This document shows positions 13,946 through 30,893 of a DNA stretch of 35,336 nucleotides, piece after piece. The notes beneath the pieces are model-generated. The model searched no databases. It had not been told where the DNA came from and was given only the letters and a program-made list of their open reading frames with translations. Numbering within the stretch: position 1 is the stretch's first letter; each line of letters opens with the position of its first letter. The stretch is from contig JAISPL010000002.1 of the NCBI GenBank assembly GCA_031274925.1, positions 1 to 35,336 of the forward strand, read 5' to 3'. The translations under genes and the position numbers were made by a program. Source of the DNA: Syntrophobacterales bacterium. Its GTDB lineage: Bacteria; Desulfobacterota; Syntrophorhabdia; Syntrophorhabdales; Syntrophorhabdaceae.

Positions 13946-16900
13946 TCACACTAACCCCAAATACTTCTCAAAAAACTCCATCAGTTTATCAATAATGCCC
14001 TGCTTCTTCTCGGCGCGGTTTCCGGCGCCACCACCAAAACGGGAAACGGGTGGTAGAATTTTATCCACATCCGTGCCTGTAGTTTTCATTGCTCCGTCAC
14101 GGAAAGCATTATCTATAAACCGGTGTGTTTCCTCGGGCTTTAGCTTCTCAGATTCAATCAGAGCAGACAGATCGGTTTCCTTTTGCTCGTGTACAAACCG
14201 CTGCCAGTCATCGTCCACCTTGGTAGAAGTGTTGACTCGTGCGATAAAGCCCTCAATGAGTTTTTTCTTGCTCCGCAGTTCAAGGCTGGAACTGACAGCT
14301 TTATTAATTGCCACCAGGATACTCTTATCCGTACAATTGGACTCATGATACTTCGCTACCAGCATGAGGATATAGTCAATGTTGATCTCGATCTGTTTTA
14401 TAAGTTCTATCTCGAATTCGATATCGTCGTTGATATTTTCTTTATCGGCGTCTTTGCTCTTGGTAAACGATTGATATAAATCGAGATATATACTCCGGTA
14501 ATCTTGAAAATCCCGTTCGGACAAGATTTCGTTTCCTGCGAACTCATCAAAAGCGGTCAGGATATTTTTCAGCCGCAGGATTGTACCAAGCAGACGGATA
14601 AAGTCCTTTTGCGCCATCTCCCCAATAATAGCGATGCCCAGGGGATATGTCGCAACAAGCATCTCCATAAGCTCTGTATATCCGGCTTGGCGCTTTCCGT
14701 TTTCTTCGTATCCGTTGTAATAATCACCATAGGCTTTGAGCAGGACAATGCCGCCCGCCTCCTTGTCTCCAAACAAGGCGATTGCCTCATCGGTCGCTTT
14801 TTTTAAGTCACGGAAACAGATGATGTTTCCAAAAGCCTTCACGCTGTTGAGTATCCGGTTGGTGCGCGAAAATGCCTGAATCAATCCGTGCTGTTTCAGG
14901 TTTTTATCAACCCACAAAGTGTTGAGGGTGGTGGCGTCAAAACCTGTCAGGAACATATTGACCACAATCAGTAAATCAACCTCGCGGTTTTTCACTCTCA
15001 GGGAAAGGTCTTTATAATAGTTCGGGAACTTGTCCGCCGACGTGTCGTAATTTGCGTTAAACATGGCGTTGTAGTCGGCTATCGCGCTGTCGAGGAAATC
15101 GCGGGAGGTCTTGTCTAACTTATCGTTCTCAAAGCCCTCATCGGGGAGCGCGTCTTCCGGGTCATCCTCGTTGGCGCTGAAACTGAATATGGTAGCGATA
15201 CGCAAAGCAGAGCCGCGCTCAGCCAGTTGCCGCTTGAATTCATCGTAATACTTCATTGCCATCGGGATGGACGCTACAGCGAAGATGGAATTGAAACCCG
15301 CTACACGCTGCTTATTGAGAGTATAGAACGCGCTGCGCATTGTCTTTTGGTCGAAGTGGTCGAGGGTATATTTGACAATTTCTTGTACCCGCTTAGGATC
15401 GGACATGACTTTTCCCGAGTCGATGGCACGAACTTGCGCGTCCTGCACATCGCTCGCCATTTTTACCGTATTCGCATAGTCGATGCGAAACGGCAGCACA
15501 TTTTCATCTTTAATGGCGTCCACAATTGTATAGGTGTGCAGCTTTTCGCCGAACGTCTGCCCTGTGGTGTGCAGGAACGTACTGCCGCCATGCCCGGCAT
15601 TGTCTGCAAAGATGGGCGTTCCCGTGAAACCGAATATATGATAGCGCCTGAACGCTTTTATGATCGCCTGATGCATTTCTCCGAACTGGGAGCGATGACA
15701 CTCGTCAAAAATCAAAACAACATGCTGATCGAATACCGGATGCTTTTTGTTTCTGCCGATGAATACCCCCAGCTTCTGAATCGTGGTAATGATGATTCGC
15801 GCATTCGGATTTTCCAACTGACCTTTCAGCACAGCCGTGGATATATTGGAGTTTGCCGCGCCCCTTTTAAAGCGATCGTATTCTTTCATGGTCTGATAGT
15901 CCAAGTCTTTGCGGTCGACTACAAACAGAACCTTCTCGATGGTCGGTAACGCGGTGGCAAGCTGCGCCGTTTTGAAACTGGTAAGCGTTTTGCCGGAGCC
16001 GGTAGTATGCCAGATATACCCGCCGTCTTTATCCGTACCGTATTGTTTGTAATTCGTTGCAATTGCGATGCGCTTCAAAATCAGTTCGGTCGCCGCGATT
16101 TGATACGGGCGCATGACGAGCAGCAGATCTTCAGAGGTGAACACGCAATAGCGGGTGAGGATATTCAAAATTGTATGTTTGGCAAAAAAGGTCTTGGTGA
16201 AATCGGTCAGATCGCCAATGGCTCTATTGGTCGCGTCCGCCCAATAGCTTGTGAATTTAAAGCTGTTGCTGGTTTTCTTGCTTTTCCGGCTCCCGCCCTC
16301 GCTTGATTCTTTTATATGGGCGTTGCGAGTGGTGTTGGAATAATATTTCGTGTTCGTGCCGTTGGAAATAACGAAAATCTGAATATACTCATAAAGACCG
16401 CTTGCCGCCCAAAAACTGTCGCGCTGATAACGTTTTATTTGATTGAACGCTTCGCGGATCGCCACGCCACGCCGCTTCAATTCGATGTGAACGAGAGGCA
16501 GGCCGTTGACAAGGATAGAAACATCATAGCGTGTTTCATGCGTCCCGCCGGATTCTTTGTATTGGTTTATCACCTGCAAGCGGTTATTGTGGATATTCTT
16601 TTTATCAAGCAGATACACGTTTTTTGTGCTTCCGTCGTCACGCCTCAAAATCTGAATGTGGTCGTCCTGTATCCTGCGGGTTTTCTCAACAATGCCCTCG
16701 TTGGCATTTGCAATGCACCTGTCAAAAAATTGTGTCCATTCTGAATCAGAAAACACAATCCTGTTAAGTATTTCAAGCTGCCGCCGCAGGTTGTTAATCA
16801 GCGCGGCTTCGCTATGTATGGCAATAAACTCATAACCCTGACCGGAGAGCAGTTGTATAAACTCACATTCCAAGTCGGCTTCGCTCTGATATTCAGCCGC

Positions 16901-16975
16901 TGTTCTGTAAGGCGGGAAGTATTCCGCAACAACGGTACTTTCGTCGGTGCTCACAACGATATTATAGGTATTCAT
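13946..16975 (-). CDS. hsdR: Type I restriction enzyme R subunit HsdR
   Basis: The motor-nuclease subunit of a type I restriction-modification complex, 1009 residues, a normal length. The N-terminal nuclease domain shows the PD-(D/E)xK-like pattern YDVSILVNGLPLVHIELKRRG. The SF2 translocase has motif I HTTGSGKTLTSF (about residues 320-330), motif II LIFDECHRSQFG (about 422-433), motif III FGFTGTPIF and the C-terminal motor motifs (MFLTGFDATTLNTLWVDKNL, QAFSRTNRI). The ATG at 16975 follows AGAAAGGACGG. It is the last gene of the minus-strand hsdM-hsdS-GIY-YIG-hsdR operon. I see no truncation or frameshift, so restriction activity is plausible. Confidence 0.96.
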   Translation of the reverse strand: MNTYNIVVSTDESTVVAEYFPPYRTAAEYQSEADLECEFIQLLSGQGYEFIAIHSEAALINNLRRQLEILNRIVFSDSEWTQFFDRCIANANEGIVEKTRRIQDDHIQILRRDDGSTKNVYLLDKKNIHNNRLQVINQYKESGGTHETRYDVSILVNGLPLVHIELKRRGVAIREAFNQIKRYQRDSFWAASGLYEYIQIFVISNGTNTKYYSNTTRNAHIKESSEGGSRKSKKTSNSFKFTSYWADATNRAIGDLTDFTKTFFAKHTILNILTRYCVFTSEDLLLVMRPYQIAATELILKRIAIATNYKQYGTDKDGGYIWHTTGSGKTLTSFKTAQLATALPTIEKVLFVVDRKDLDYQTMKEYDRFKRGAANSNISTAVLKGQLENPNARIIITTIQKLGVFIGRNKKHPVFDQHVVLIFDECHRSQFGEMHQAIIKAFRRYHIFGFTGTPIFADNAGHGGSTFLHTTGQTFGEKLHTYTIVDAIKDENVLPFRIDYANTVKMASDVQDAQVRAIDSGKVMSDPKRVQEIVKYTLDHFDQKTMRSAFYTLNKQRVAGFNSIFAVASIPMAMKYYDEFKRQLAERGSALRIATIFSFSANEDDPEDALPDEGFENDKLDKTSRDFLDSAIADYNAMFNANYDTSADKFPNYYKDLSLRVKNREVDLLIVVNMFLTGFDATTLNTLWVDKNLKQHGLIQAFSRTNRILNSVKAFGNIICFRDLKKATDEAIALFGDKEAGGIVLLKAYGDYYNGYEENGKRQAGYTELMEMLVATYPLGIAIIGEMAQKDFIRLLGTILRLKNILTAFDEFAGNEILSERDFQDYRSIYLDLYQSFTKSKDADKENINDDIEFEIELIKQIEINIDYILMLVAKYHESNCTDKSILVAINKAVSSSLELRSKKKLIEGFIARVNTSTKVDDDWQRFVHEQKETDLSALIESEKLKPEETHRFIDNAFRDGAMKTTGTDVDKILPPVSRFGGGAGNRAEKKQGIIDKLMEFFEKYLGLV

Positions 16976-17003
16976 ACAACCGTCCTTTCTAATGAGGCGT
17001 GGA

Positions 17004-17663
17004 TTACCGCCCTAACCGTTTTCTCATATCAGTCAGTGTTTCCCCCTTGTATTTGAACCATAGACCGCCCTGATATGCGCCGCTCTGATTAGCGGTTCCC
17101 AACTTTTCGTTGATATATCTGGCAGCCGCAGATAAGGACAATTCAAGGTCATCGACTCTTACTGTACTGCCCTTATCAACCACTTTAGCGGTAATGCTAC
17201 TATCAGAGTAAAACGCGAGTTTTTCTCCGACAGGTATTCCAAGCATTTCAAAAGTAAGCCTCGCTGAACGCTCTAAGTGGGGTTGAGATTTACCGTTATT
17301 CTGCACATTTATTTCATCCAGCAAATCTTCGTCAAATATTTCTACTTCTGCGTCATCGTATTGTTCCGAACACAGCACAAGTATGTCATACGCTTTTCGC
17401 GGAGTAATATTGAAGAACTCCCGACCTTTTCTAATCCTTATATCAGGCGCTACCATGTCAATCATCTTATGAATAAAACGCTCTGCCGCATTGTATTTTG
17501 CTGTTTTAAGCGTAGCGCATATACTGAATGGAAGTGGGACAGCCGTATTGTCAAGCTCCTTACTGCGGACGTTAACGGGTCGTGAGCTTTTTCCAATTTT
17601 CACCCAATCGTCCACAAAACTTGGGTTGGTCAAAATATAAACATATCCTTGATTATCGCTCAT
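17004..17663 (-). CDS. GIY-YIG (T5orf172-like) protein embedded in the hsd operon
   Basis: A 219-residue protein. The N-terminal segment GYVYILTNPSFVDDWVKIGKSSRPVNVRSKEL has the GIY-YIG arrangement (here YVYIL...KIG) plus the downstream Arg-containing helix. A helix with a Glu (AAERFIHKMI) and the REFFNI strand complete a T5orf172-type nuclease fold in about 100 residues. The remainder, about residues 140-215, resembles a small DUF4357-like module (ARLTFEMLGIPVGEKLAFYSD...GAYQGGLWFKYKGETL) found in restriction-linked proteins. Its start overlaps the hsdS stop as TAATG, and hsdR begins 28 bases after it, so it belongs to the R-M transcript. Nuclease activity and role are not established here. 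Confidence 0.72.
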   Translation of the reverse strand: MSDNQGYVYILTNPSFVDDWVKIGKSSRPVNVRSKELDNTAVPLPFSICATLKTAKYNAAERFIHKMIDMVAPDIRIRKGREFFNITPRKAYDILVLCSEQYDDAEVEIFDEDLLDEINVQNNGKSQPHLERSARLTFEMLGIPVGEKLAFYSDSSITAKVVDKGSTVRVDDLELSLSAAARYINEKLGTANQSGAYQGGLWFKYKGETLTDMRKRLGR

Positions 17664-18793
17664 TACACAGCCTCCTTAAAGGTCAGCAGTTTATCGCGGT
17701 AGTATTCATATTGCTTTTGCCGCGCTACGATTTCGGCGGGGAGGCCGCTTGTGATGTCGGTAGTCAACGAGTGAAAACGATTAAGGATTGTTACAATACA
17801 CTCCTGTATAATCGTCGAGGGAAACGGAATGATAAAATCCTTTATTTGCCCCGCTGTAATAAGTGGTTGTCCACCGCCTTTGGCGAATCTGTTTATCTCA
17901 AAATTTATCAAGTAGAAATAAACATATTGCAAATTCACACCTTGCTCTACATCGACTATCAAAGTATTATCTGACACATCATAATTACCGACTGCTTTGT
18001 GAACGAATCCGCAGTTGGCTCCAACTCTTGCTACAAGTATTTTTTCTCCATTGTAAACGGGACTATCAGTATATCCAATTATCCCGGTAGAACCATACAC
18101 GGGGAAATCGCCTGTTTGCTGTTTATCAATGTTTCTACCGGATGTAATCCTAGATATATCACCCAGCTTTTGCATTATAACTTCGGGCCAAGTTGGCCCG
18201 AAGTTATGTGTCAAGAGTCGGTTTCTGTAAAAGTCATATTGCTTTTTTCTCGCTGTAAGCTCCGCTGTAAGCTCCGCTGTAAGCTCCGTGAAATTGTCCA
18301 GAATACGGACAATTTCACGTTGTACGGGTAGCGGAGGAATGGGGATAAGATAGCGCATATTTGCGTCCTTACTTCCTCGCGGCATTTTTCCGCCTTTTGA
18401 GTGTTGTGTGGCATAGGCGAAAAAGCGGTCAGATGAAAGCACATAATATAGATAATCAGCTAAAATGTCCTCTTCAGTAATGTGTACTACAAGCACATCG
18501 CCGTTTGTGCCGCCTACATGGTCAGAAAGCCATATCTTTTTCAGATACGGTCTGATATTTCCAATTAACACATCGCCTTGCTCATATCCAGTCAGCATAC
18601 CCGATTCGGGTACATAACCCGATAAATCCTTGCCGCCCTTATCGGGTAAGAGATTATCAACACCGACATAATTATCCGCGCTCACCATTTGAGCAGAAAT
18701 CCTTGTAGTTGAGTATTGTGCCAGTTCGCTCAACGGCTTATGCACAACTCCGTTAGGACAGAGTTCAGAGATCAGGCGGTCAAGATTCGGCAT
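17663..18793 (-). CDS. hsdS: Type I restriction-modification specificity subunit HsdS
   Basis: Determines the two-part DNA target of the HsdM/HsdR complex. The 376 residues contain two target-recognition domains: TRD1 at about residues 1-165 (ending PPLPVQREIVRILDNFTEL) and TRD2 at about 200-330 (QKLGDISRITSGRNI...GANCGFV). Each is followed by a conserved helix (RKKQYDFYRNRLL and RQKQYEYYRDKLL). The first helix carries three exact ELTA repeats (TELTAELTAELTA), encoded by a 12-bp tandem repeat at 18251-18286. TAEL repeats at this place in type IC enzymes such as EcoR124I set the spacer between half-sites. Start and stop overlap with hsdM (TAATG) and with the GIY-YIG gene (TAATG). Confidence 0.93.
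   Translation of the reverse strand: MPNLDRLISELCPNGVVHKPLSELAQYSTTRISAQMVSADNYVGVDNLLPDKGGKDLSGYVPESGMLTGYEQGDVLIGNIRPYLKKIWLSDHVGGTNGDVLVVHITEEDILADYLYYVLSSDRFFAYATQHSKGGKMPRGSKDANMRYLIPIPPLPVQREIVRILDNFTELTAELTAELTARKKQYDFYRNRLLTHNFGPTWPEVIMQKLGDISRITSGRNIDKQQTGDFPVYGSTGIIGYTDSPVYNGEKILVARVGANCGFVHKAVGNYDVSDNTLIVDVEQGVNLQYVYFYLINFEINRFAKGGGQPLITAGQIKDFIIPFPSTIIQECIVTILNRFHSLTTDITSGLPAEIVARQKQYEYYRDKLLTFKEAV
18251..18286 (-). repeat. Three perfect 12-bp tandem repeats in hsdS (ELTA repeats)
   Basis: CGCTGTAAGCTC (plus strand) occurs three times head to tail at 18251-18262, 18263-18274 and 18275-18286. The unit is a multiple of 3, so a change in copy number keeps the frame and only lengthens or shortens the helix between the two recognition domains by four residues. 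Confidence 0.95.
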
Positions 18794-20361
18794 TATTGTC
18801 CACCCTCAATCTCTGCAATAATCGCGTTAATTTCACGACGCAGAACATCGCCGCGAGATACTATTTCCTCGATTTCAGCATTTAGTTCTCGGATGTCAAC
18901 GACTTCTCGTGTGTCCTCCTGCTCGACGTATGTGCTAATCGACAAGCTATAATTTTTCTCGGCGATTTCGCTGTTCGGTACAAGTCGTGAAAAATGCACT
19001 TTTGAATCACGGCTTGCGTATACGGCAACCAAATTATCAATATGCTCCCGTGTAAGTTTATTGCTGTTCGTTACTTTGATAAACTCACGACTTGCGTCTA
19101 TAAAAAGGGTGCTGTTGGCACTTTTCGATTTTTTTAAAACCATAATGCAAGTGGCAATGGTCGTGCCATAAAAAAGATTGTCCGGCAACTGAATCACGCA
19201 GTCGATAAAGTTATTGTCTATCAAATACTTACGAATTTTCTGTTCCGCTCCGCCGCGATAAAAGACGCCGGGAAAACAAACGATCGCCGCCGTGCCGCTT
19301 GTGGCAAGCCATGACAGCGAATGCATGATAAAGGCAAGGTCAGCCTTGCTCTTAGGCGCAAGCACCCCGGCCGGTGAAAAGCGCGCATCGTTAATCAATG
19401 TGGGGTTATCGGCGCCCGCCCATTTGATGGAATACGGAGGATTGGAAACAATTGCCTCAAACGGTTCGTCGTCCCAGTGAAGCGGTTCGGTAAGCGTATC
19501 GCCGTGCCCTATATCGAATTTATCAAAACCCACATCATGCAGGAACATGTTGATACGACACAGGTTATAAGTCGTTATGTTGATTTCCTGCCCGTAAAAC
19601 CCTCGCCGGACATTGTCCTTACCCAATATTTTAGCGAATTTCAAAAGGAGTGAGCCGCTTCCGCAAGCGGGGTCATACACCTTGTTTACTTCGGTTTTTC
19701 CCACAAGGGCGATACGGGTCAGCAGTTCGGAAACCTCCTGCGGCGTGTAGTATTCGCCTCCGCTTTTACCTGCATTTCCGGCGTACATACCCATTAAAAA
19801 TTCGTATGCGTCGCCGAAAGCGTCAATGGTGTTGTCCTTGTAATCACCGAGCTTCATATCAGCAACACCATTCATCAGCTTAACAAGCCGCTCGTTACGC
19901 TTTAGAACGGTCCCGCCGAGCTTGTTACTGTTTACGTCAATATCATCAAACAGCCCCTTAAAATTTCCTTCGCTGTCCGTTCCATGCGCTGAAGATTCTA
20001 TATCCTTAAAGACGCTTTCAAGCGTCTCGTTCAGGTTCCCGTCTGTGGCAGCGCGTTTCCGCACGTTCTCAAAAAGTTCGCTTGGCAGGATAAAAAAACC
20101 CTTTGTCTTAACAAGGTCGTCACGGGCCTGTTCTGCGTCAGCATCAGCAAGCGCGGCATAATCGAAAGTCATATCTCCGGCCTCGTGTTCGCCCTCATTG
20201 ATATAAGAGGAAAGGTTTTCCGATATATAGCGGTAGAAAAGCATACCGAGGACATATTGCTTGAAGTCCCAACCGTCTACGCTCCCGCGCAAGTCGTTGG
20301 CAATATTCCATATCGTGCGGTGCAGTTCCGCCCGTTCCTGTTCTTTTCGGTTATCAATCAT
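18793..20361 (-). CDS. hsdM: Type I restriction-modification DNA methyltransferase HsdM
   Basis: An adenine-N6 methyltransferase subunit of 522 residues, full length. The N-terminal region has the HsdM helical domain (IWNIANDLRGSVDGWDFKQYVLGMLFYRYISENL), with SAM-binding motif I DPACGSGSLLLKF at about residues 228-240 and catalytic motif IV NPPY at about 305-308. It protects host sites with HsdS and is needed in the restriction complex with HsdR. First gene of the operon; a GAGAGAGG site sits about 10 bases upstream of the ATG at 20361. Codon use in the whole hsd block looks more AT-rich than in the atp genes, fitting horizontal gain, though I did not compute it. Confidence 0.96.
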   Translation of the reverse strand: MIDNRKEQERAELHRTIWNIANDLRGSVDGWDFKQYVLGMLFYRYISENLSSYINEGEHEAGDMTFDYAALADADAEQARDDLVKTKGFFILPSELFENVRKRAATDGNLNETLESVFKDIESSAHGTDSEGNFKGLFDDIDVNSNKLGGTVLKRNERLVKLMNGVADMKLGDYKDNTIDAFGDAYEFLMGMYAGNAGKSGGEYYTPQEVSELLTRIALVGKTEVNKVYDPACGSGSLLLKFAKILGKDNVRRGFYGQEINITTYNLCRINMFLHDVGFDKFDIGHGDTLTEPLHWDDEPFEAIVSNPPYSIKWAGADNPTLINDARFSPAGVLAPKSKADLAFIMHSLSWLATSGTAAIVCFPGVFYRGGAEQKIRKYLIDNNFIDCVIQLPDNLFYGTTIATCIMVLKKSKSANSTLFIDASREFIKVTNSNKLTREHIDNLVAVYASRDSKVHFSRLVPNSEIAEKNYSLSISTYVEQEDTREVVDIRELNAEIEEIVSRGDVLRREINAIIAEIEGGQ

Positions 20362-25318: not shown

Positions 25319-25801
25319 TCAGTTAAACTTTACACCCGCCTTTTTCAGATAATCTCTCAAGGCCGTGGTCTTGTAATGTTTTTCCTTTGCGTATTCGAGA
25401 AGGATTCCAAACTCCTTCTTATCGACATATCCAGGGACCCTTATGATGACCTTTCCGGACGGCTCCATAAAGCAGGTGCTGGGATAGCCCCTTATGCCGT
25501 ATTTCGTCGCAAGGTCAGGTCTCGCTTCAACATCTATCCTGAGCGACACGACCTTAAACTTCATGATGTTTGCAATCTCCCTGTCGGCCAATACATCCCT
25601 TTCCATGGCTACGCAATAGGGACAATATTTGCTGTAAAAATATAGGACGAGCGCTTTGTCCTCCGCCTTTGCCCTTTTGAGCGCGGCAGCGTAATCCTCC
25701 GCAAACAGTTCCGCGGGGCTTAAACACAAAGCTGCGGCGATGAAGCAAATGAGTCCGCCCATCCCAAGAATACCGTGTCTGAAAGAAAAATCGTTTTTCA
25801 T
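25319..25801 (-). CDS. Periplasmic thioredoxin-fold protein (CxxC)
   Basis: A 160-residue exported protein from the ATG at 25801 (MKNDFSFRHG). A hydrophobic signal region covers about residues 10-34 (ILGMGGLICFIAAALCLSPAELFA). The thioredoxin domain has the active-site motif CPYC (Cys60-Cys63) in LVLYFYSKYCPYC and the cis-Pro motif in GYPST. It likely reduces or shuffles disulfides outside the cytoplasm; similar proteins act in cytochrome maturation or as DsbD-like partners. The frame is open further upstream (to 26014), but the extra sequence looks like non-coding basic residues. A second in-frame ATG at 25819 is also possible. No strong ribosome-binding site for either. Confidence 0.82.
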   Translation of the reverse strand: MKNDFSFRHGILGMGGLICFIAAALCLSPAELFAEDYAAALKRAKAEDKALVLYFYSKYCPYCVAMERDVLADREIANIMKFKVVSLRIDVEARPDLATKYGIRGYPSTCFMEPSGKVIIRVPGYVDKKEFGILLEYAKEKHYKTTALRDYLKKAGVKFN

Positions 25802-25819
25802 CAAAGATAATGATACCAT

Positions 25820-26271
25820 ACTCCGAGCGTAAAAATCATCACCCCCTTTTTGAAGCGCCTTGGCCAAGTATGTTAAATGTCTTGCTATAATACGCGATAT
25901 TAAGACCGATACCAGCCTCGTCCGCCAGAAGAACATCTTCAGGCCTCGCCCAGGAGACAGTGTGCGGTGCGGGGTATCCCGGGGTTTACGACTACTATTA
26001 GGCAAGCGCCCCAAGGGGCGGGGAATTAGACCCGCAGAGATTAAAGAAGGAGTGATATTCTTATGTCAGCGTAAGATGCATCGACATGACATAGCCGACG
26101 GAACATGTCCGCTGCTGGAACCACATATACTGGACAAAAAGGCAATGGGCGGGATTGCGGATGATAACAGAAGATTCATAAATACAGTCATTGATATGTA
26201 CTTCCGCTTACTGCTTAAGCGGAAGTGTTTTGGGATTTATATATTTAACTTACAAAGCGCCTTTAAGAGCA
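25820..26271. other. Intergenic region with one terminator-like hairpin
   Basis: About 450 bases with no recognisable gene. It includes GCGCCCCAAGGGGCG-type inverted sequence near 26004-26019, a single GAATTAGACCC...GATTAAAG stretch, and a start-like AAGGAG...ATG that opens only MSA before a stop. None of this supports a gene. The hairpin at 26200-26226 is annotated separately. Confidence 0.35.
26200..26230 (+). terminator. Strong hairpin between accessory and core genes
   Basis: ACTTCCGCTTA (26200-26210) and TAAGCGGAAGT (26216-26226) form a perfect 11-bp stem with a 5-base loop. On the plus strand GTTTT follows, a short T-run. On the minus strand it lies about 45 bases after the stop of the STY0301-like gene, so it may serve as that operon's end, though the minus-strand T-run is poor. 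Confidence 0.5.
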
Positions 26272-26736
26272 TCACTCCTTCGCTCTTGGCGTGTCAAAAC
26301 ACTTGATCGTTATCCCGTCAGGAACCGTAACATCGCTTATGTATTTAACCTCACAACGTACAGCGTTTTCAGGGAGTTTTTGCACCAGAACAACTCTGGA
26401 ATCGGAATATCCGCATACAGCCCAATAATTCGGCTCATTAACATGATCGTAATAGACGGTTCTCTCTCCATTATGCAGTTTTTCTTCCGTCGGAACCTCA
26501 AACCCTGTTTGTTTAACCGGATATTCTCCTGCGGAGATAACAATATATTTAGCCGGCAGGGGTTCTTCGCTGTCGACAGCTTTCCATCCATCCTCTGCGG
26601 AAGACGAGATGTTTTGCTTGACGGTCAACCGGGACGGGCATTGTTTGACGGACAATTCAGCGGCTGTCGCACGGACTATCACAAGGTGCAGCCCTATAAA
26701 CACCAGCGCCGCACAAGTCAGAGTCTTTGCGTTCAC
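26272..26736 (-). CDS. STY0301-family-like exported protein, possible immunity partner
   Basis: A 154-residue protein with an N-terminal signal peptide (MNAKTLTCAALVFIGLHLVIVRATAAE), so it should be periplasmic. The mature part shows the pattern of the STY0301 family: an early CPSRLTVKQ, a Trp in DGWKAV, a central Y-rich strand region (NYWAVCGYSDSRVVLVQKLP) and a late RCEV. The gene starts with GTG in a GTGA overlap with the upstream BPSL0067-like gene. An exported, small, cysteine-containing partner translated right after a putative peptidoglycan amidase fits an immunity protein; this role is inferred from context. Confidence 0.65.
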   Translation of the reverse strand: MNAKTLTCAALVFIGLHLVIVRATAAELSVKQCPSRLTVKQNISSSAEDGWKAVDSEEPLPAKYIVISAGEYPVKQTGFEVPTEEKLHNGERTVYYDHVNEPNYWAVCGYSDSRVVLVQKLPENAVRCEVKYISDVTVPDGITIKCFDTPRAKE

Positions 26737-27185
26737 AGGATCACTGAGAAGGCTTCACCGTTGTTACTGGGGTTAACATAGCTTCCGTCTGCATTTTTCC
26801 CGCGATTGAAGAGTTTGCGCTCTATGATGCGAACACTGTTCTTGAACTGTTCAACGATGATGATGCGTATCCCGGGAGTACCTTGCTCGGGATTTGGATC
26901 ATCAAAAGACCCAACAAAAAACGCAGCATGACCATGCCCGCTTACAAAACGCCCATTTACAAATGTGGCAATGGCCGTACCTTCCATGATCGTCCCGCCA
27001 TTTTTAAGAGTTTCTATAACGTTCGGACCTTTAGTCCACGTACTTGTGCTACGGTTTTTCAGCTCCGGAATGTAACGCTTCACCAGGGAAACGCATTCCC
27101 CCAGGTAATTTCCTGCTATGTCCGCCACATGGGGTTTGCCAATCTGTGACGTTGGATTAGGATAAACATAAGGGCCAGCCATCAT
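26733..27185 (-). CDS. BPSL0067-family-like putative peptidoglycan amidase
   Basis: A 150-residue protein without a signal peptide. It reads as a compact NlpC/P60/CHAP-like cysteine peptidase: Cys31 in LGECVSLVKRYIPEL, a conserved KGPNV region, IMEGTAIATFVNGRF, His86 in GHGHAAFFVG, and a C-terminal NNGEAFSVIL. These features match what I recall of the BPSL0067 family, whose members are linked to contact-dependent cell-wall effectors. It overlaps the exported STY0301-like gene by 4 bases. The start follows AAGGAGG; ATGs lie at 27185 and 27182 and the second has the better spacing. No type VI secretion gene is visible, so delivery is unknown. Confidence 0.65.
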   Translation of the reverse strand: MMAGPYVYPNPTSQIGKPHVADIAGNYLGECVSLVKRYIPELKNRSTSTWTKGPNVIETLKNGGTIMEGTAIATFVNGRFVSGHGHAAFFVGSFDDPNPEQGTPGIRIIIVEQFKNSVRIIERKLFNRGKNADGSYVNPSNNGEAFSVIL

Positions 27186-27214
27186 TTACCTCCTTAAGTT
27201 ATCAAGCAGTCAAT

Positions 27215-27600
27215 GCCTTGAAAATTTCTTATCTGTATTATTGTATGCAGAGGCGCATCAATCTTGTCAAGCGGTATGTACCTTGCAGTCCCCAAATTCC
27301 CTTTAATACAGCCTGTCGCTCACGATCCGTAAGCCCATACGCCCATACCTGCGAAGGTGGATCTGTTCGCTGCCAAAGAGTCCGCGCCTCAAGACTCAAC
27401 ATATGCCTTCAGGACGAACGAACTGCCTGGGCGGAGTGATTGAGCGGCGTGGTTGTAACCAGCTATGCCGCGATAGCTTCTGAATTCATCGGTATAGACG
27501 GATGTGCCTTGCGCTATGTTGTGCTGATGAGTTTTTCCGACATCTCGTCCGGATATAGCTTGAAAAATTCATAAATGGAAATTGTAACCTTACGCACGGT
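27215..27600 (-). pseudogene. IS1595-family transposase relic
   Basis: Minus-strand fragments of an ISXO2/IS1595-type transposase. A GTG at about 27597 opens RKVTISIYEFFKLYPDEM, which resembles the N-terminal ..F...FPDE region of these enzymes, and stops soon after. Immediately following is the DDE-domain core GTSVYTDEFRSYRGIAGYNHA (about 27450-27510), matching the family's VYTDEFRSYRGL..Y.H. The zinc-binding and first catalytic Asp parts are missing between them, so an internal deletion is evident, and beyond the core the frame is broken. Terminal inverted repeats were not found. Confidence 0.6.
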
Positions 27601-27709
27601 AGAATAATCTTTGTTAATATTATTATATCACATGGTTATGTTCTGTAAGTTAGCTCTATAATCATCATTTTTTGTTGATACCCTCTTCGGATAAAATTTT
27701 TGGGTCGTC

Positions 27710-28849
27710 CTAACGCGCATAAGACCATACCCGTACGTCGCGGCCGCCAATCGTTGCGACGTTGCCGGCGCTGTCATACTGTACGTTTTTGGCATCGATT
27801 GTTGTAATATTGCCGGCACTGTCATACTGCATTTTGTGACCGCCAATCGTTGCGACGTTGCCGGCGCCGTCATATTGCACTTTTTTGCCGCCAATTTTTG
27901 TAATCCTGCCATCCTTGTCATACTGTATGTCGTCAACGTTTGTAATCCTGCCATACCTGTCATACTTTACGTCATCAACGTATGCAATCATGCCATACCC
28001 GTCATGCGGCATTATGGCGCCGTCATCTGATATAATTTTACCGCGCATACCATTCTGTACTGTTTTGCCGCCAATTTTTGCAATGTTGCCATACCTGCCA
28101 TACCTTACGCCGGTAATTTTTGCAATCCCGACATACTTATTAAGTTCTGTTTTTTTCAGGTCGTCTTCATTGACTCCTGCAATTATGCCGGAGCTGTCAT
28201 CATATTGTACGGTTCGGCCGCCAATGTATATGATTTTGCCGGAAACAGTATCATAGTGCACCCTTTCGTGGCCGATGTATTTGAGTCTGTCATAATTGTC
28301 ATATTCTATTCTTTCATTGCCAATATATTCAATTTTGCCGGAACCGTCATACACTACCTTCTCATCGCCAATGTATGCAATGTTGCCATACTTGTCATAT
28401 TCCACTCTCTCATCGCCAACGTATGTAATTTTACCGGAACTGTTATGCTGTACGGTTCGGCCGCCAATGTATGCGACGTTGCCGGAGCTGTCATACACTG
28501 CCTTCTCGTCGCCAATGTCCGCCATTTTACCATACTTGTCATATTCCACTTTTTCGTCGCCAATATATTCAATTTTGCCGGAACCGTCATACTCCACTTT
28601 TTCGTCGCCAATGTATGCGACGTTACCGGCGCTGTCATAGTGTATCGTCAGTTCCTGATGGTCGTAATTTGTTGTAATTGCGCCAGACCCGGGCGGCATA
28701 TCCTGGTTGCCGCTGTTTGCGGTTTTGCCGGAAGTATCGCGCTTAATGCCCCCTATGCCGGCCAGAGCATCATCATTACCGCCGGCAGCAAAAACAGGCG
28801 TTATGAACATAGGCGCCATTAAAATAAAAATTAAAAAAATCTTTTTCAT
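27710..28849 (-). CDS. Exported protein of 16-residue YD/IG repeats (copy 1)
   Basis: A 379-residue protein with a clear signal peptide (MKKIFLIFILMAPMFITPVFA). After a short Gly/Asn/Ser-rich linker, the rest is a run of 16-residue repeats of the type V-x-Y-D-x-x-G-x-I-x-x-I-G-D-E-K (for example VEYDKYGNIAYIGDEK). Eight or more clear units lie in the first half. A less regular stretch around the middle (VNEDDLKKTELNKYVG) interrupts them, and they resume to the C-terminus. The unit is shorter than an RHS/YD repeat but has the same YD..G core, which suggests a beta-solenoid. I know similar uncharacterised proteins from Bacteroidota. It shares leader and signal peptide with the gene upstream at 28984-30480. 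The ATG at 28849 is chosen for the signal peptide. Confidence 0.8.
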   Translation of the reverse strand: MKKIFLIFILMAPMFITPVFAAGGNDDALAGIGGIKRDTSGKTANSGNQDMPPGSGAITTNYDHQELTIHYDSAGNVAYIGDEKVEYDGSGKIEYIGDEKVEYDKYGKMADIGDEKAVYDSSGNVAYIGGRTVQHNSSGKITYVGDERVEYDKYGNIAYIGDEKVVYDGSGKIEYIGNERIEYDNYDRLKYIGHERVHYDTVSGKIIYIGGRTVQYDDSSGIIAGVNEDDLKKTELNKYVGIAKITGVRYGRYGNIAKIGGKTVQNGMRGKIISDDGAIMPHDGYGMIAYVDDVKYDRYGRITNVDDIQYDKDGRITKIGGKKVQYDGAGNVATIGGHKMQYDSAGNITTIDAKNVQYDSAGNVATIGGRDVRVWSYAR

Positions 28850-28983
28850 AAGAGAATCTTCAAACCTCACTAATATCGTTGATCATGAGCATGGCTTTCA
28901 TTCCACCACTCCGCAATAACAATATCTTGCGCCCGCTTAAAGCCGGAGCCTCACGGCCGCCGCCGCTCCACACCTGTAAGGCA

Positions 28984-30480
28984 TCAGGGGCTGTCGCCTC
29001 TATCCTTTAACTTACGATCACACTGGGGGTATGGGCAGGTACCCACTGCAAGGTTGGCATAACGATCATTAAGAAATACCTGTACGTTGTGGCCGCCAAT
29101 TTTTGTAACGTTGCCATACTTATCATAGTATACTTTTTCGCCGTCCATTTTCGCAATTTTGCCGGAGCCATCGTGCTGCACTTCGCCGTAAAACGTGTTA
29201 ATTGTTGTAATTATGTTAAAGCTTGCAGGCTGTGCATTTTTGCCGTCGCTTTTTATAACCCTGCCAGAATTATCATACTGTGCGAGCGGGGCGGTAACTA
29301 TTAAAACTTTACCGGAACGCTCATCATACCGTACCCGTACGTCAAGACCGCCAATCGTTGTAACGGCGCCATACATGTCATACTGTACTTCCCGGCCGTC
29401 AATTGTCGTAATTGCGCCATAACGATCATACTCTATTTTTTCGCCGTCAATTGTCGTAATTGCGGCAATGCTGCCATACATGTCGTAGTGTACTTTGTCG
29501 CCGCTGATCAGTGTAATGGCTGCAATGTCGCCATAACGATCATACTCTATTTTTTCGCCGTCAATTGTCGTAATTGCGGTAATTCTGCCGGAACTGTCAT
29601 GTTGTATTTTGTGGCCGTCAATTGTTGCGCTTGTTGTAGCGTTGCCATACTTATCATACTGTACTTTTTGAGCGCCAATTTTTGTGACCCTGCCATATTT
29701 ATCATATTGTACTTTCTGATCGCCAATTTTTGTAATTTTGTCGGGACCATCATACTGTACTTTCTGGTCGCCAATTTTTGAAATGTTGCCAAGACCATCA
29801 TACTGTACGCTTTTTATAATGACACTATAATGACTATGGCTCAAAAGCCTTGCAAACCACTTTACATCTTCGTTGTTGCGCCGTATACGTTGCGCTTTCC
29901 TGTCATATTTTGCAGCGTGTCTGTAGCTGCCGCTCCGTACGTATTTATCGTCACTGCTTGTGGCGCTGCTGTAACTTGAAGACCACGTGTCGTTATCGTC
30001 ACTACTTGTACTACTACTTGCACTACTACTGCTACTGCTGCTACTGCTGCTACTACTGCTACTTGAACTGTCGCTCTTTGTGTCTTTGTCATCACTTTTT
30101 TTATCGTTACCCCGATAGTCATTTCGTACGTCTTTGTCGCCAATTTTTGTGACTTTGCCAAACCCGTCGCGCTGTATGTCCTGATCCCCAATTTTTGTGA
30201 CTTTGCCAAACCCGTCGCGCTGTACGTTCTGATCGCCAATGCTTGTGACTTTGCCAAACCCGTCGCGCTGTACGTTCTGATCGCCAATGCTTGAAATGTT
30301 GCCTTTATAGTCCAGTTGTACATTCTTGTCGCCAATTCTTGAAATGTTGCCTTTATAGTCCCGTTGTACGTCTTTGTCGCCAATTCTTGAAATACTGGCC
30401 AGATCCTCATCATCACCGGCAAAAACAGGCGTTATAAACATAAGGGCCATTAAAATAAAAATTAAAAAAATCTTTTTCAT
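28984..30480 (-). CDS. Exported protein of 16/19-residue YD/IG repeats (copy 2) with Ser-rich linker
   Basis: A 498-residue paralogue of the next gene. The signal peptide is nearly identical (MKKIFLIFILMALMFITPVFA). N-terminal repeats are of a VQRDGFGKVTKIGDQ type (about residues 30-125). A low-complexity linker follows with a run of about 16 serines plus Ser/Asp/Tyr-rich sequence (about residues 135-200). Then the repeats resume as VQYDKYGRVTKIGAQK and as 19-residue units with ITTIDGEK in place of IGDEK. The two repeat blocks separated by a flexible serine linker imply two rigid arms. A consensus promoter lies just upstream. No membrane anchor or sorting signal is visible at the C-terminus, which ends in a Cys/Asp/Lys-rich tail. 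Confidence 0.8.
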   Translation of the reverse strand: MKKIFLIFILMALMFITPVFAGDDEDLASISRIGDKDVQRDYKGNISRIGDKNVQLDYKGNISSIGDQNVQRDGFGKVTSIGDQNVQRDGFGKVTKIGDQDIQRDGFGKVTKIGDKDVRNDYRGNDKKSDDKDTKSDSSSSSSSSSSSSSSSSASSSTSSDDNDTWSSSYSSATSSDDKYVRSGSYRHAAKYDRKAQRIRRNNEDVKWFARLLSHSHYSVIIKSVQYDGLGNISKIGDQKVQYDGPDKITKIGDQKVQYDKYGRVTKIGAQKVQYDKYGNATTSATIDGHKIQHDSSGRITAITTIDGEKIEYDRYGDIAAITLISGDKVHYDMYGSIAAITTIDGEKIEYDRYGAITTIDGREVQYDMYGAVTTIGGLDVRVRYDERSGKVLIVTAPLAQYDNSGRVIKSDGKNAQPASFNIITTINTFYGEVQHDGSGKIAKMDGEKVYYDKYGNVTKIGGHNVQVFLNDRYANLAVGTCPYPQCDRKLKDRGDSP

Positions 30481-30893
30481 AAGAGAATCTTCAAGCCTCC
30501 TTATCGTTCATCATACGCATGGCTTTTATTCCTGAATTATTATAGCATATACGCTATTTTCCAACAAAAAGCTTCAAAGGCATAAGGACCGGACAACCGC
30601 AAGAAGACAGGCGCGGAATTTTAGAAGGTTAAGCCCCCAATCCCCCATTGCCGCAATCCTTGAGCGATACTTTGCGCCGGCCTCACGCGCCGCTTGGCCT
30701 CACGCGCCCCTACTCCGCGCCCTTGGGAGGGCTTAAGAGGGTTTGACCGTCCGCGGCATTGGTGAAAATCTCCATCTATAAGTATTATTCGGGTCTCTGT
30801 GGCAATTGGATACAAGATTTGGACGCCCGCGCGGGGCGGCCGGGCGGACCGCTTGCGACATCGGTGGAGGCTGCCCCGCCGCTTCGCCTCTGG
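30481..30893. other. Intergenic region between repeat protein and MFS gene
   Basis: Beyond the promoter at 30539-30567 I see no gene or RNA. The section 30660-30740 holds GCCTCACGCGCC twice and other GC-rich short repeats with no evident function. Confidence 0.35.
30539..30567 (-). promoter_or_regulatory. Promoter of the repeat-protein genes
   Basis: Minus strand TTGTTG (30567-30562), 17 bases, then a perfect TATAAT (30544-30539). The ATG at 30480 is about 60 bases further on, with GGAGG about 15 bases before it, rather far. The upstream sequence of the second gene (beyond 28850) is recognisably related to the last 60 bases of this leader but has lost this promoter. Confidence 0.65.

What the first reader, a model, noticed from the sequence alone, without database searches (positions are those of the whole stretch)
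27710..30567. Two tandem exported proteins made almost entirely of 16-residue YD/IG repeats
Two adjacent minus-strand genes share a signal peptide, leader sequence and a compact repeat, V.YD..G.I..IGDEK, with 16 residues in most units and 19 in others. The leader of the second gene is a degraded copy of the first, so the pair arose by tandem duplication. The unit has the YD..G core of RHS repeats but is shorter and lacks the RHS cap or toxin domain. Proteins with such repeats are largely uncharacterised. They could be surface or matrix scaffolds, or a shell that encloses ligands.
Basis: partly seen in the sequence, partly recalled or inferred. Interest (0 to 1): 0.7.

Follow-up and report, generated by a model that had tools for sequence, protein, structure and literature searches.

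The report
Two secreted short YD-repeat proteins
Two neighbouring duplicated genes encode exported proteins built almost wholly of a 16-residue hairpin repeat related to the YD repeats of large toxin shells, but too small and too incomplete to form such a shell; they are probably binding scaffolds of the cell envelope, and no characterised relative was found.

Summary
Two adjacent minus-strand genes (28849-27710, 379 aa; 30480-28984, 498 aa) carry near-identical Sec signal peptides and arrays of a 16-residue unit, V.YD..G.I..IGDEK, some units with 19 residues. Periodicity is far above shuffles. Across units, the core D and G barely change while synonymous sites vary strongly, so the repeat is selected as protein. 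The unit belongs, distantly, to the YD/RHS class: the Pfam RHS_repeat cut-off is just passed, the profile match to RHS repeats beats every shuffled control, and local structure matches RHS/teneurin shells. It is not an RHS effector: no core, plug, protease or toxin was found, the unit is shorter, and the proteins are under half the size of a solved cocoon. A beta-solenoid is not supported; low-confidence AlphaFold2 models show a hairpin meander resembling open single-layer sheets. The beta-flower cut-off was not reached. The pair was found in no other of 98 related genomes and lies in a segment not conserved in a congener. Weak relatives exist: two ~230-residue secreted proteins in one other family of the phylum and a Pseudanabaena plasmid protein; none was seen paired. 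Best reading: secreted, multivalent binding scaffolds, a short-unit variant of YD-repeat proteins. Function is inferred.

The parts
27710..28849 (-). repeat protein 1, 379 aa, ATG start with the same context as gene 2 (the GTG at 28870 is an alternative, less likely start)
28984..30480 (-). repeat protein 2, 498 aa
28787..28849 (-). signal peptide MKKIFLIFILMAPMFITPVFA of protein 1 (cleavage after A21 inferred by eye)
30418..30480 (-). signal peptide MKKIFLIFILMALMFITPVFA of protein 2 (cleavage after A21 inferred by eye)
28163..28645 (-). protein 1, first array: 10 contiguous units of 16-17 residues (residues 69-229)
27737..28108 (-). protein 1, second array: 8 units, two of 14 residues and some degenerate (residues 248-371)
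30118..30369 (-). protein 2, N-terminal array of about 5-6 units; probably the most recently expanded (48-bp period, 94% matches)
29911..30117 (-). protein 2, Asp/Ser-rich linker with a poly-serine run
29086..29808 (-). protein 2, C-terminal array of about 13 units, four of 19 residues
28760..28904 (-). duplicated leader copy of gene 1 (upstream, signal peptide, start of mature part)
30397..30532 (-). duplicated leader copy of gene 2
30539..30547 (-). TGCTATAAT, an extended -10-like element upstream of gene 2 (seen by eye; the scan reported a weaker site nearby)

Best explanation
Two Sec-exported, non-enzymatic scaffold proteins made of short YD-type beta-hairpin repeats. Each 16-residue unit would be one hairpin: strand V.YD, tight turn at ..G, strand .I..I, tight turn at GDEK. 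Successive hairpins lie side by side as a meander sheet instead of the closed cocoon of full RHS proteins. Protein 2 joins two such sheets by a flexible serine linker, so it could hold two partners or two points of one polymer; protein 1 joins two arrays by a short break. They would act in the periplasm or outside the cell by multivalent binding to envelope or extracellular polymers or proteins. Shown: genes, signal peptides by sequence, repeats, constraint on the unit core, duplication, YD-class relation. Inferred: export, fold, ligand and function.
For: Repeat and constraint: (D4 pN 0.03 against saturated pS; all units pN 0.35, pS 0.54). YD class: Pfam RHS_repeat 22.3 and 26.2 bits against cut-off 22; tblastn of protein 2 hits RHS proteins, E 4e-4 to 0.09, 23-27% identity over up to 285 residues; hhalign score 35 to RHS repeats against a shuffled maximum of 19; Foldseek's lowest-E hits are teneurin and Rhs shells, and protein 1 residues 59-204 fit a teneurin YD stretch at 3.9 A over 140 residues, Z 5.3. 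Open sheet: protein 2's model matches TarM, OspA, CPAP TCP and MORN sheets, Z 5.6-8.5, rmsd mostly 2.5-5; the TCP domain is a free-standing single-layer sheet of hairpins with PDG turns that binds a partner peptide (PMC3776556). No catalytic or toxin domain found.
Against: Models are weak: mean pLDDT 55 and 48, pTM 0.27, with no or 5 sequences in the alignment. The OspA/TCP-like match falls on model residues with pLDDT mostly under 50, and Z of 7-8 is common for unrelated folds. No ligand, localisation or expression data. The RHS_repeat match is at the edge of the cut-off and TIGR01643 is below its cut-off.
Confidence: 0.45

Rival explanations
1. Beta-flower-like proteins: five or six consecutive hairpins close into a small barrel with a hydrophobic channel, so each protein is a string of lipid- or peptide-binding flowers.
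For: PF21785 (Bflower_2) scores 20.7 bits, E 3.8e-4, over residues 96-180 of protein 1; the described [DNEQ]xxG tip motif fits YD..G (PMC10584680); a beta-flower fetched from the phylum (L038) also shows 16 residues between YD motifs; hhalign score 24 slightly exceeds the shuffled maximum of 21.
Against: Cut-off of 38 bits not reached; profile match weaker than to RHS repeats (23.5% against 83.8%); spacing after the turn differs (G.I..I here, G..IG.V in L038); arrays of 8-13 units exceed five or six; no C-terminal hydrophobic helix.
Confidence: 0.2
2. Decayed remnants of an RHS toxin gene whose core, plug and toxin were lost, with no function left.
For: Relation to RHS repeats; a possible transposase remnant lies beside them.
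Against: Two intact frames with intact signal peptides, constraint on unit cores across 29 units, units expanded in frame; no other gene in this genome reached the RHS_repeat cut-off.
Confidence: 0.12
3. Simple repeat expansion: the arrays grow by replication slippage and the proteins are low-complexity filler, mostly disordered.
For: 48-bp periodicity with nearly identical recent units in protein 2; low model confidence over much of both proteins; lineage restriction.
Against: High synonymous divergence with D4 and G7 kept; several arrays reach pLDDT 70-88; the same unit type recurs in distant genomes.
Confidence: 0.13
4. Components of a competition module with the adjacent BPSL0067-family and STY0301-family genes, for example a secreted carrier or decoy.
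For: Adjacency on one strand in a segment not conserved in a congener.
Against: About 520 bp with a possible transposase remnant and promoter-like sequence separate them, and the relative whose neighbours were read does not show the linkage.
Confidence: 0.05

Closest known systems
RHS/YD-repeat proteins (PF05593; T6SS Rhs effectors, Tc toxin B/C components, teneurins)
   Same: YD..G hairpin motif, tandem arrays of beta-hairpins, local structural match, tblastn and profile similarity
   Different: 16- instead of about 20-residue units, no RHS core, plug, autoprotease or toxin found, Sec signal, mature proteins of 358-477 residues against about 1000
Short IGD/YD secreted proteins of one other family in the same phylum (L027 in G215, 238 aa; L093 in G191, 221 aa)
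   Same: signal-peptide-like N-terminus and arrays of units such as YESGRIRRIG; a strong outside profile match
   Different: 15-residue units, single genes, extra conserved N-terminal and C-terminal parts, no serine linker
Pseudanabaena plasmid protein ABRG53_RS23285 (WP_126391021.1)
   Same: IGD..V.Y repeats, 33% identity over 101 residues, E 2e-3
   Different: long N-terminal region with hydrophobic segments, about six irregular units, C-terminal hydrophobic segment
Beta-flower families PF21784-PF21786
   Same: [DNEQ]xxG tip motif, hairpin repeats of similar length, often with signal peptide
   Different: cut-off not reached; flowers have four to six petals, often with a C-terminal hydrophobic helix
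Single-layer sheet proteins: CPAP TCP/G-box domain, OspA, MORN repeats
   Same: predicted open hairpin meander (PMC3776556)
   Different: no sequence relation found (MORN profile control negative); architecture analogy only

Membership tests
RHS/YD-repeat proteins | RHS_repeat profile PF05593 over its cut-off | tested here: met
   22.3 and 26.2 bits, cut-off 22: just over
RHS/YD-repeat proteins | TIGR01643 YD_repeat_2x over its cut-off | tested here: not met
   11.5 and 15.0 bits, cut-off 15.8
RHS/YD-repeat proteins | RHS-associated core / C-terminal autoprotease region | tested here: not met
   no core model in Pfam at E 0.1 or NCBIfam at E 1
RHS/YD-repeat proteins | closed cocoon with plug, holding a toxin | tested here: inconclusive
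   no plug or toxin domain found; arrays far smaller than the solved cocoons; shape not determined
Beta-flower (PF21785) | profile over its cut-off | tested here: not met
   20.7 bits, cut-off 38
Beta-flower | [DNEQ]xxG motif at hairpin tips | tested here: met
   D4 in 28 and G7 in 27 of 29 units
Beta-flower | closed 8-, 10- or 12-stranded barrel | tested here: inconclusive
   models too weak; coordinates not readable here
   DSSP pattern and matches fit antiparallel hairpins instead, but the models are weak

The most novel reading that the evidence does not exclude
A separate family of secreted bacterial scaffolds in which a minimal 15-16-residue YD hairpin builds a free-standing single-layer sheet, bridging full RHS cocoons and small beta-flowers, and showing how YD shells could have arisen from short arrays.
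Probability: 0.2. Interest if true: 0.6.

Novelty: new variant of a known kind. Interest (0 to 1): 0.35.

Why it matters
RHS/YD repeats are known almost only as parts of very large toxin or adhesion shells. A 16-residue minimal unit that repeats in small exported proteins would give a tractable model for how these hairpins stack, and might link RHS cocoons with beta-flowers. The pair is also a clean case of duplication with in-frame array growth.

Tried and rejected
Scans for close relatives in genome contigs, viral contigs, phages and among 98 related genomes found none. PHROGs hits were weak and without function. PADLOC gave nothing. The PDB sequence search gave one chance hit to the serine stretch. 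The viral fold library gave nothing significant. MORN relation: hhalign score within shuffled controls. T6SS link: no VipA sheath gene found in the genome. Other repeat copies in the genome: only a two-unit fragment at G000:C15:379-474, E 6e-4. The profile hits in G188, G310 and G416 are long ordinary RHS-type proteins. The organism was not identified.

Full report
Observation. Two adjacent minus-strand frames, 28849-27710 (379 aa) and 30480-28984 (498 aa), begin with MKKIFLIFILMA(P/L)MFITPVFA and then consist almost wholly of a repeat. Autocorrelation of identical residues peaks at 16 (0.29 and 0.33; shuffled maxima 0.14 and 0.13 over 1000 shuffles and all offsets) with 19 second in the larger protein. 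The DNA shows 48- and 57-bp periods. Protein 1 has ten contiguous units, a break of about 18 residues, then eight units including two of 14 residues. Protein 2 has five to six units, an Asp/Ser-rich linker with a poly-serine run, then about 13 units of 16 to 19 residues.

Is it real protein coding? In 29 cleanly extracted units D4 is kept in 28 and G7 in 27, positions 1, 9 and 12 are mostly hydrophobic, while positions 5, 6, 10, 11 and 16 vary freely. Nei-Gojobori counts over all unit pairs give pS 0.54 and pN 0.35 (Jukes-Cantor 0.97 and 0.47); at D4 pN is 0.03 with pS saturated. The unit is therefore conserved as protein, not merely as DNA. The long plus-strand frames opposite the arrays are expected by-products of a period divisible by three.

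Duplication. The shared leader extends from about 55 bp before the start codon into the mature part, 90% identical over 105 bp, and occurs nowhere else in the 2.06-Mb genome. The ends of the two arrays also align past the last unit for some 30 bp. Tandem duplication followed by independent in-frame growth is the simplest history. The leader is nearly intact, not degraded.

What the unit is. Pfam gives RHS_repeat just over the cut-off (22.3 and 26.2 bits; cut-off 22) and Bflower_2 well below its own (20.7; cut-off 38). TIGR01643 is below cut-off. tblastn of protein 2 finds RHS proteins at 23-27% identity over about 190-285 residues, best E 4e-4. Profile-profile comparison with RHS repeats taken from genomes of the same phylum scores 35 (84% probability) against a maximum of 19 for 100 column-shuffled controls; with beta-flowers 24 against 21; with a MORN protein it is within the controls. 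The spacing G.I..I after the turn is that of RHS repeats (own comparison with the RHS proteins). So the unit belongs to the YD class, apparently shortened by the loss of the loop between hairpins, with beta-flowers as a second, weaker resemblance.

Structure. AlphaFold2 on protein 1 alone gave mean pLDDT 55 with the better arrays at 70-86; on protein 2 with a five-row alignment of window sequences, mean 48, the N-terminal array 71-88. Both show two short strands per unit, as antiparallel hairpins would, and no solenoid signature. Foldseek's lowest-E hits are teneurin and Rhs shells (best E about 1e-6 and 1e-7) but with TM-scores of about 0.15-0.28, that is local similarity. VIA-align matches protein 1 residues 59-204 to a teneurin-2 YD stretch at 3.9 A over 140 residues (Z 5.3), and protein 2 residues of about 252-344 to TarM, OspA, CPAP TCP and MORN sheets (Z 5.6-8.5); that part of the model is of low confidence, and such Z values are common for unrelated folds. 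The CPAP TCP domain is described as a free-standing single-layer sheet of about 20 antiparallel strands, hairpin turns often PDG, binding a partner peptide (PMC3776556). It is an architectural analogy only.

Why not an RHS shell. In solved Rhs proteins the C-terminal conserved region of 14 repeats spirals inward and seals the cocoon, and an N-terminal plug closes the other end (PMC8765631). Neither part was found here, and solved cocoons are about 1000 residues (target lengths).

Distribution and context. None of 98 other genomes searched, including two of the same genus, has a relative by sequence. A profile search of 395 genomes of the phylum finds ordinary long RHS-type proteins and two short-unit secreted proteins of 221 and 238 aa, clearly related to each other, in two genera of one other family. 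A Pseudanabaena plasmid protein carries similar units. No relative seen is paired. In the congener G001 the genes up to the thioredoxin (25319-26014) are syntenic, but the next genes differ and the MFS orthologue is on another contig, so the repeat genes lie in a lineage-specific segment, shared with a BPSL0067-family/STY0301-family pair and possibly a transposase remnant.

Verdict. Most likely these are exported binding scaffolds of a short-unit YD variety. Function, ligand and location are inference.

Noticed in passing
26272-27185 (-): Two genes overlapping by 4 bp: BPSL0067 family (94 bits, cut-off 27) and STY0301 family (51 bits, cut-off 22), by recollection resembling a T6SS amidase effector and its immunity protein, yet no T6SS sheath (VipA) gene was found in the 97%-complete genome.
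   Followed up: partly
27186-27709 (-): Two frame-shifted peptide pieces (KVTISIYEFFKLYPDEMSEKLI and TSVYTDEFRSYRGIAGYNHAAQ) look like a decayed IS1595-type transposase from memory; no Pfam hit.
   Followed up: partly
27710-27720 and 29050-29065 (-): The ends of the two genes align past the last unit; gene 1 has TAG where gene 2 reads TAT, so one of them may have gained or lost its stop after duplication.
   Followed up: no
L088:6849-8690 (-) in G001: Near the matching place beside the thioredoxin the congener carries a secreted 613-aa MORN-repeat protein, another hairpin-sheet repeat but unrelated in sequence.
   Followed up: partly
13946-20361 (-): A complete type I restriction-modification set (HsdR, a T5orf172 protein, HsdS, HsdM) lies upstream of parA/parB and the ATP synthase operon; 12-bp tandem repeats in hsdS at 18251-18288 (3.2 copies) could vary its target specificity.
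   Followed up: no
G000:C15:379-474 (+): A two-unit fragment (EKVEYRSNGQVSSISNEQVEYHSNGQ) in an 81-residue open frame, maybe a remnant of a related repeat.
   Followed up: partly
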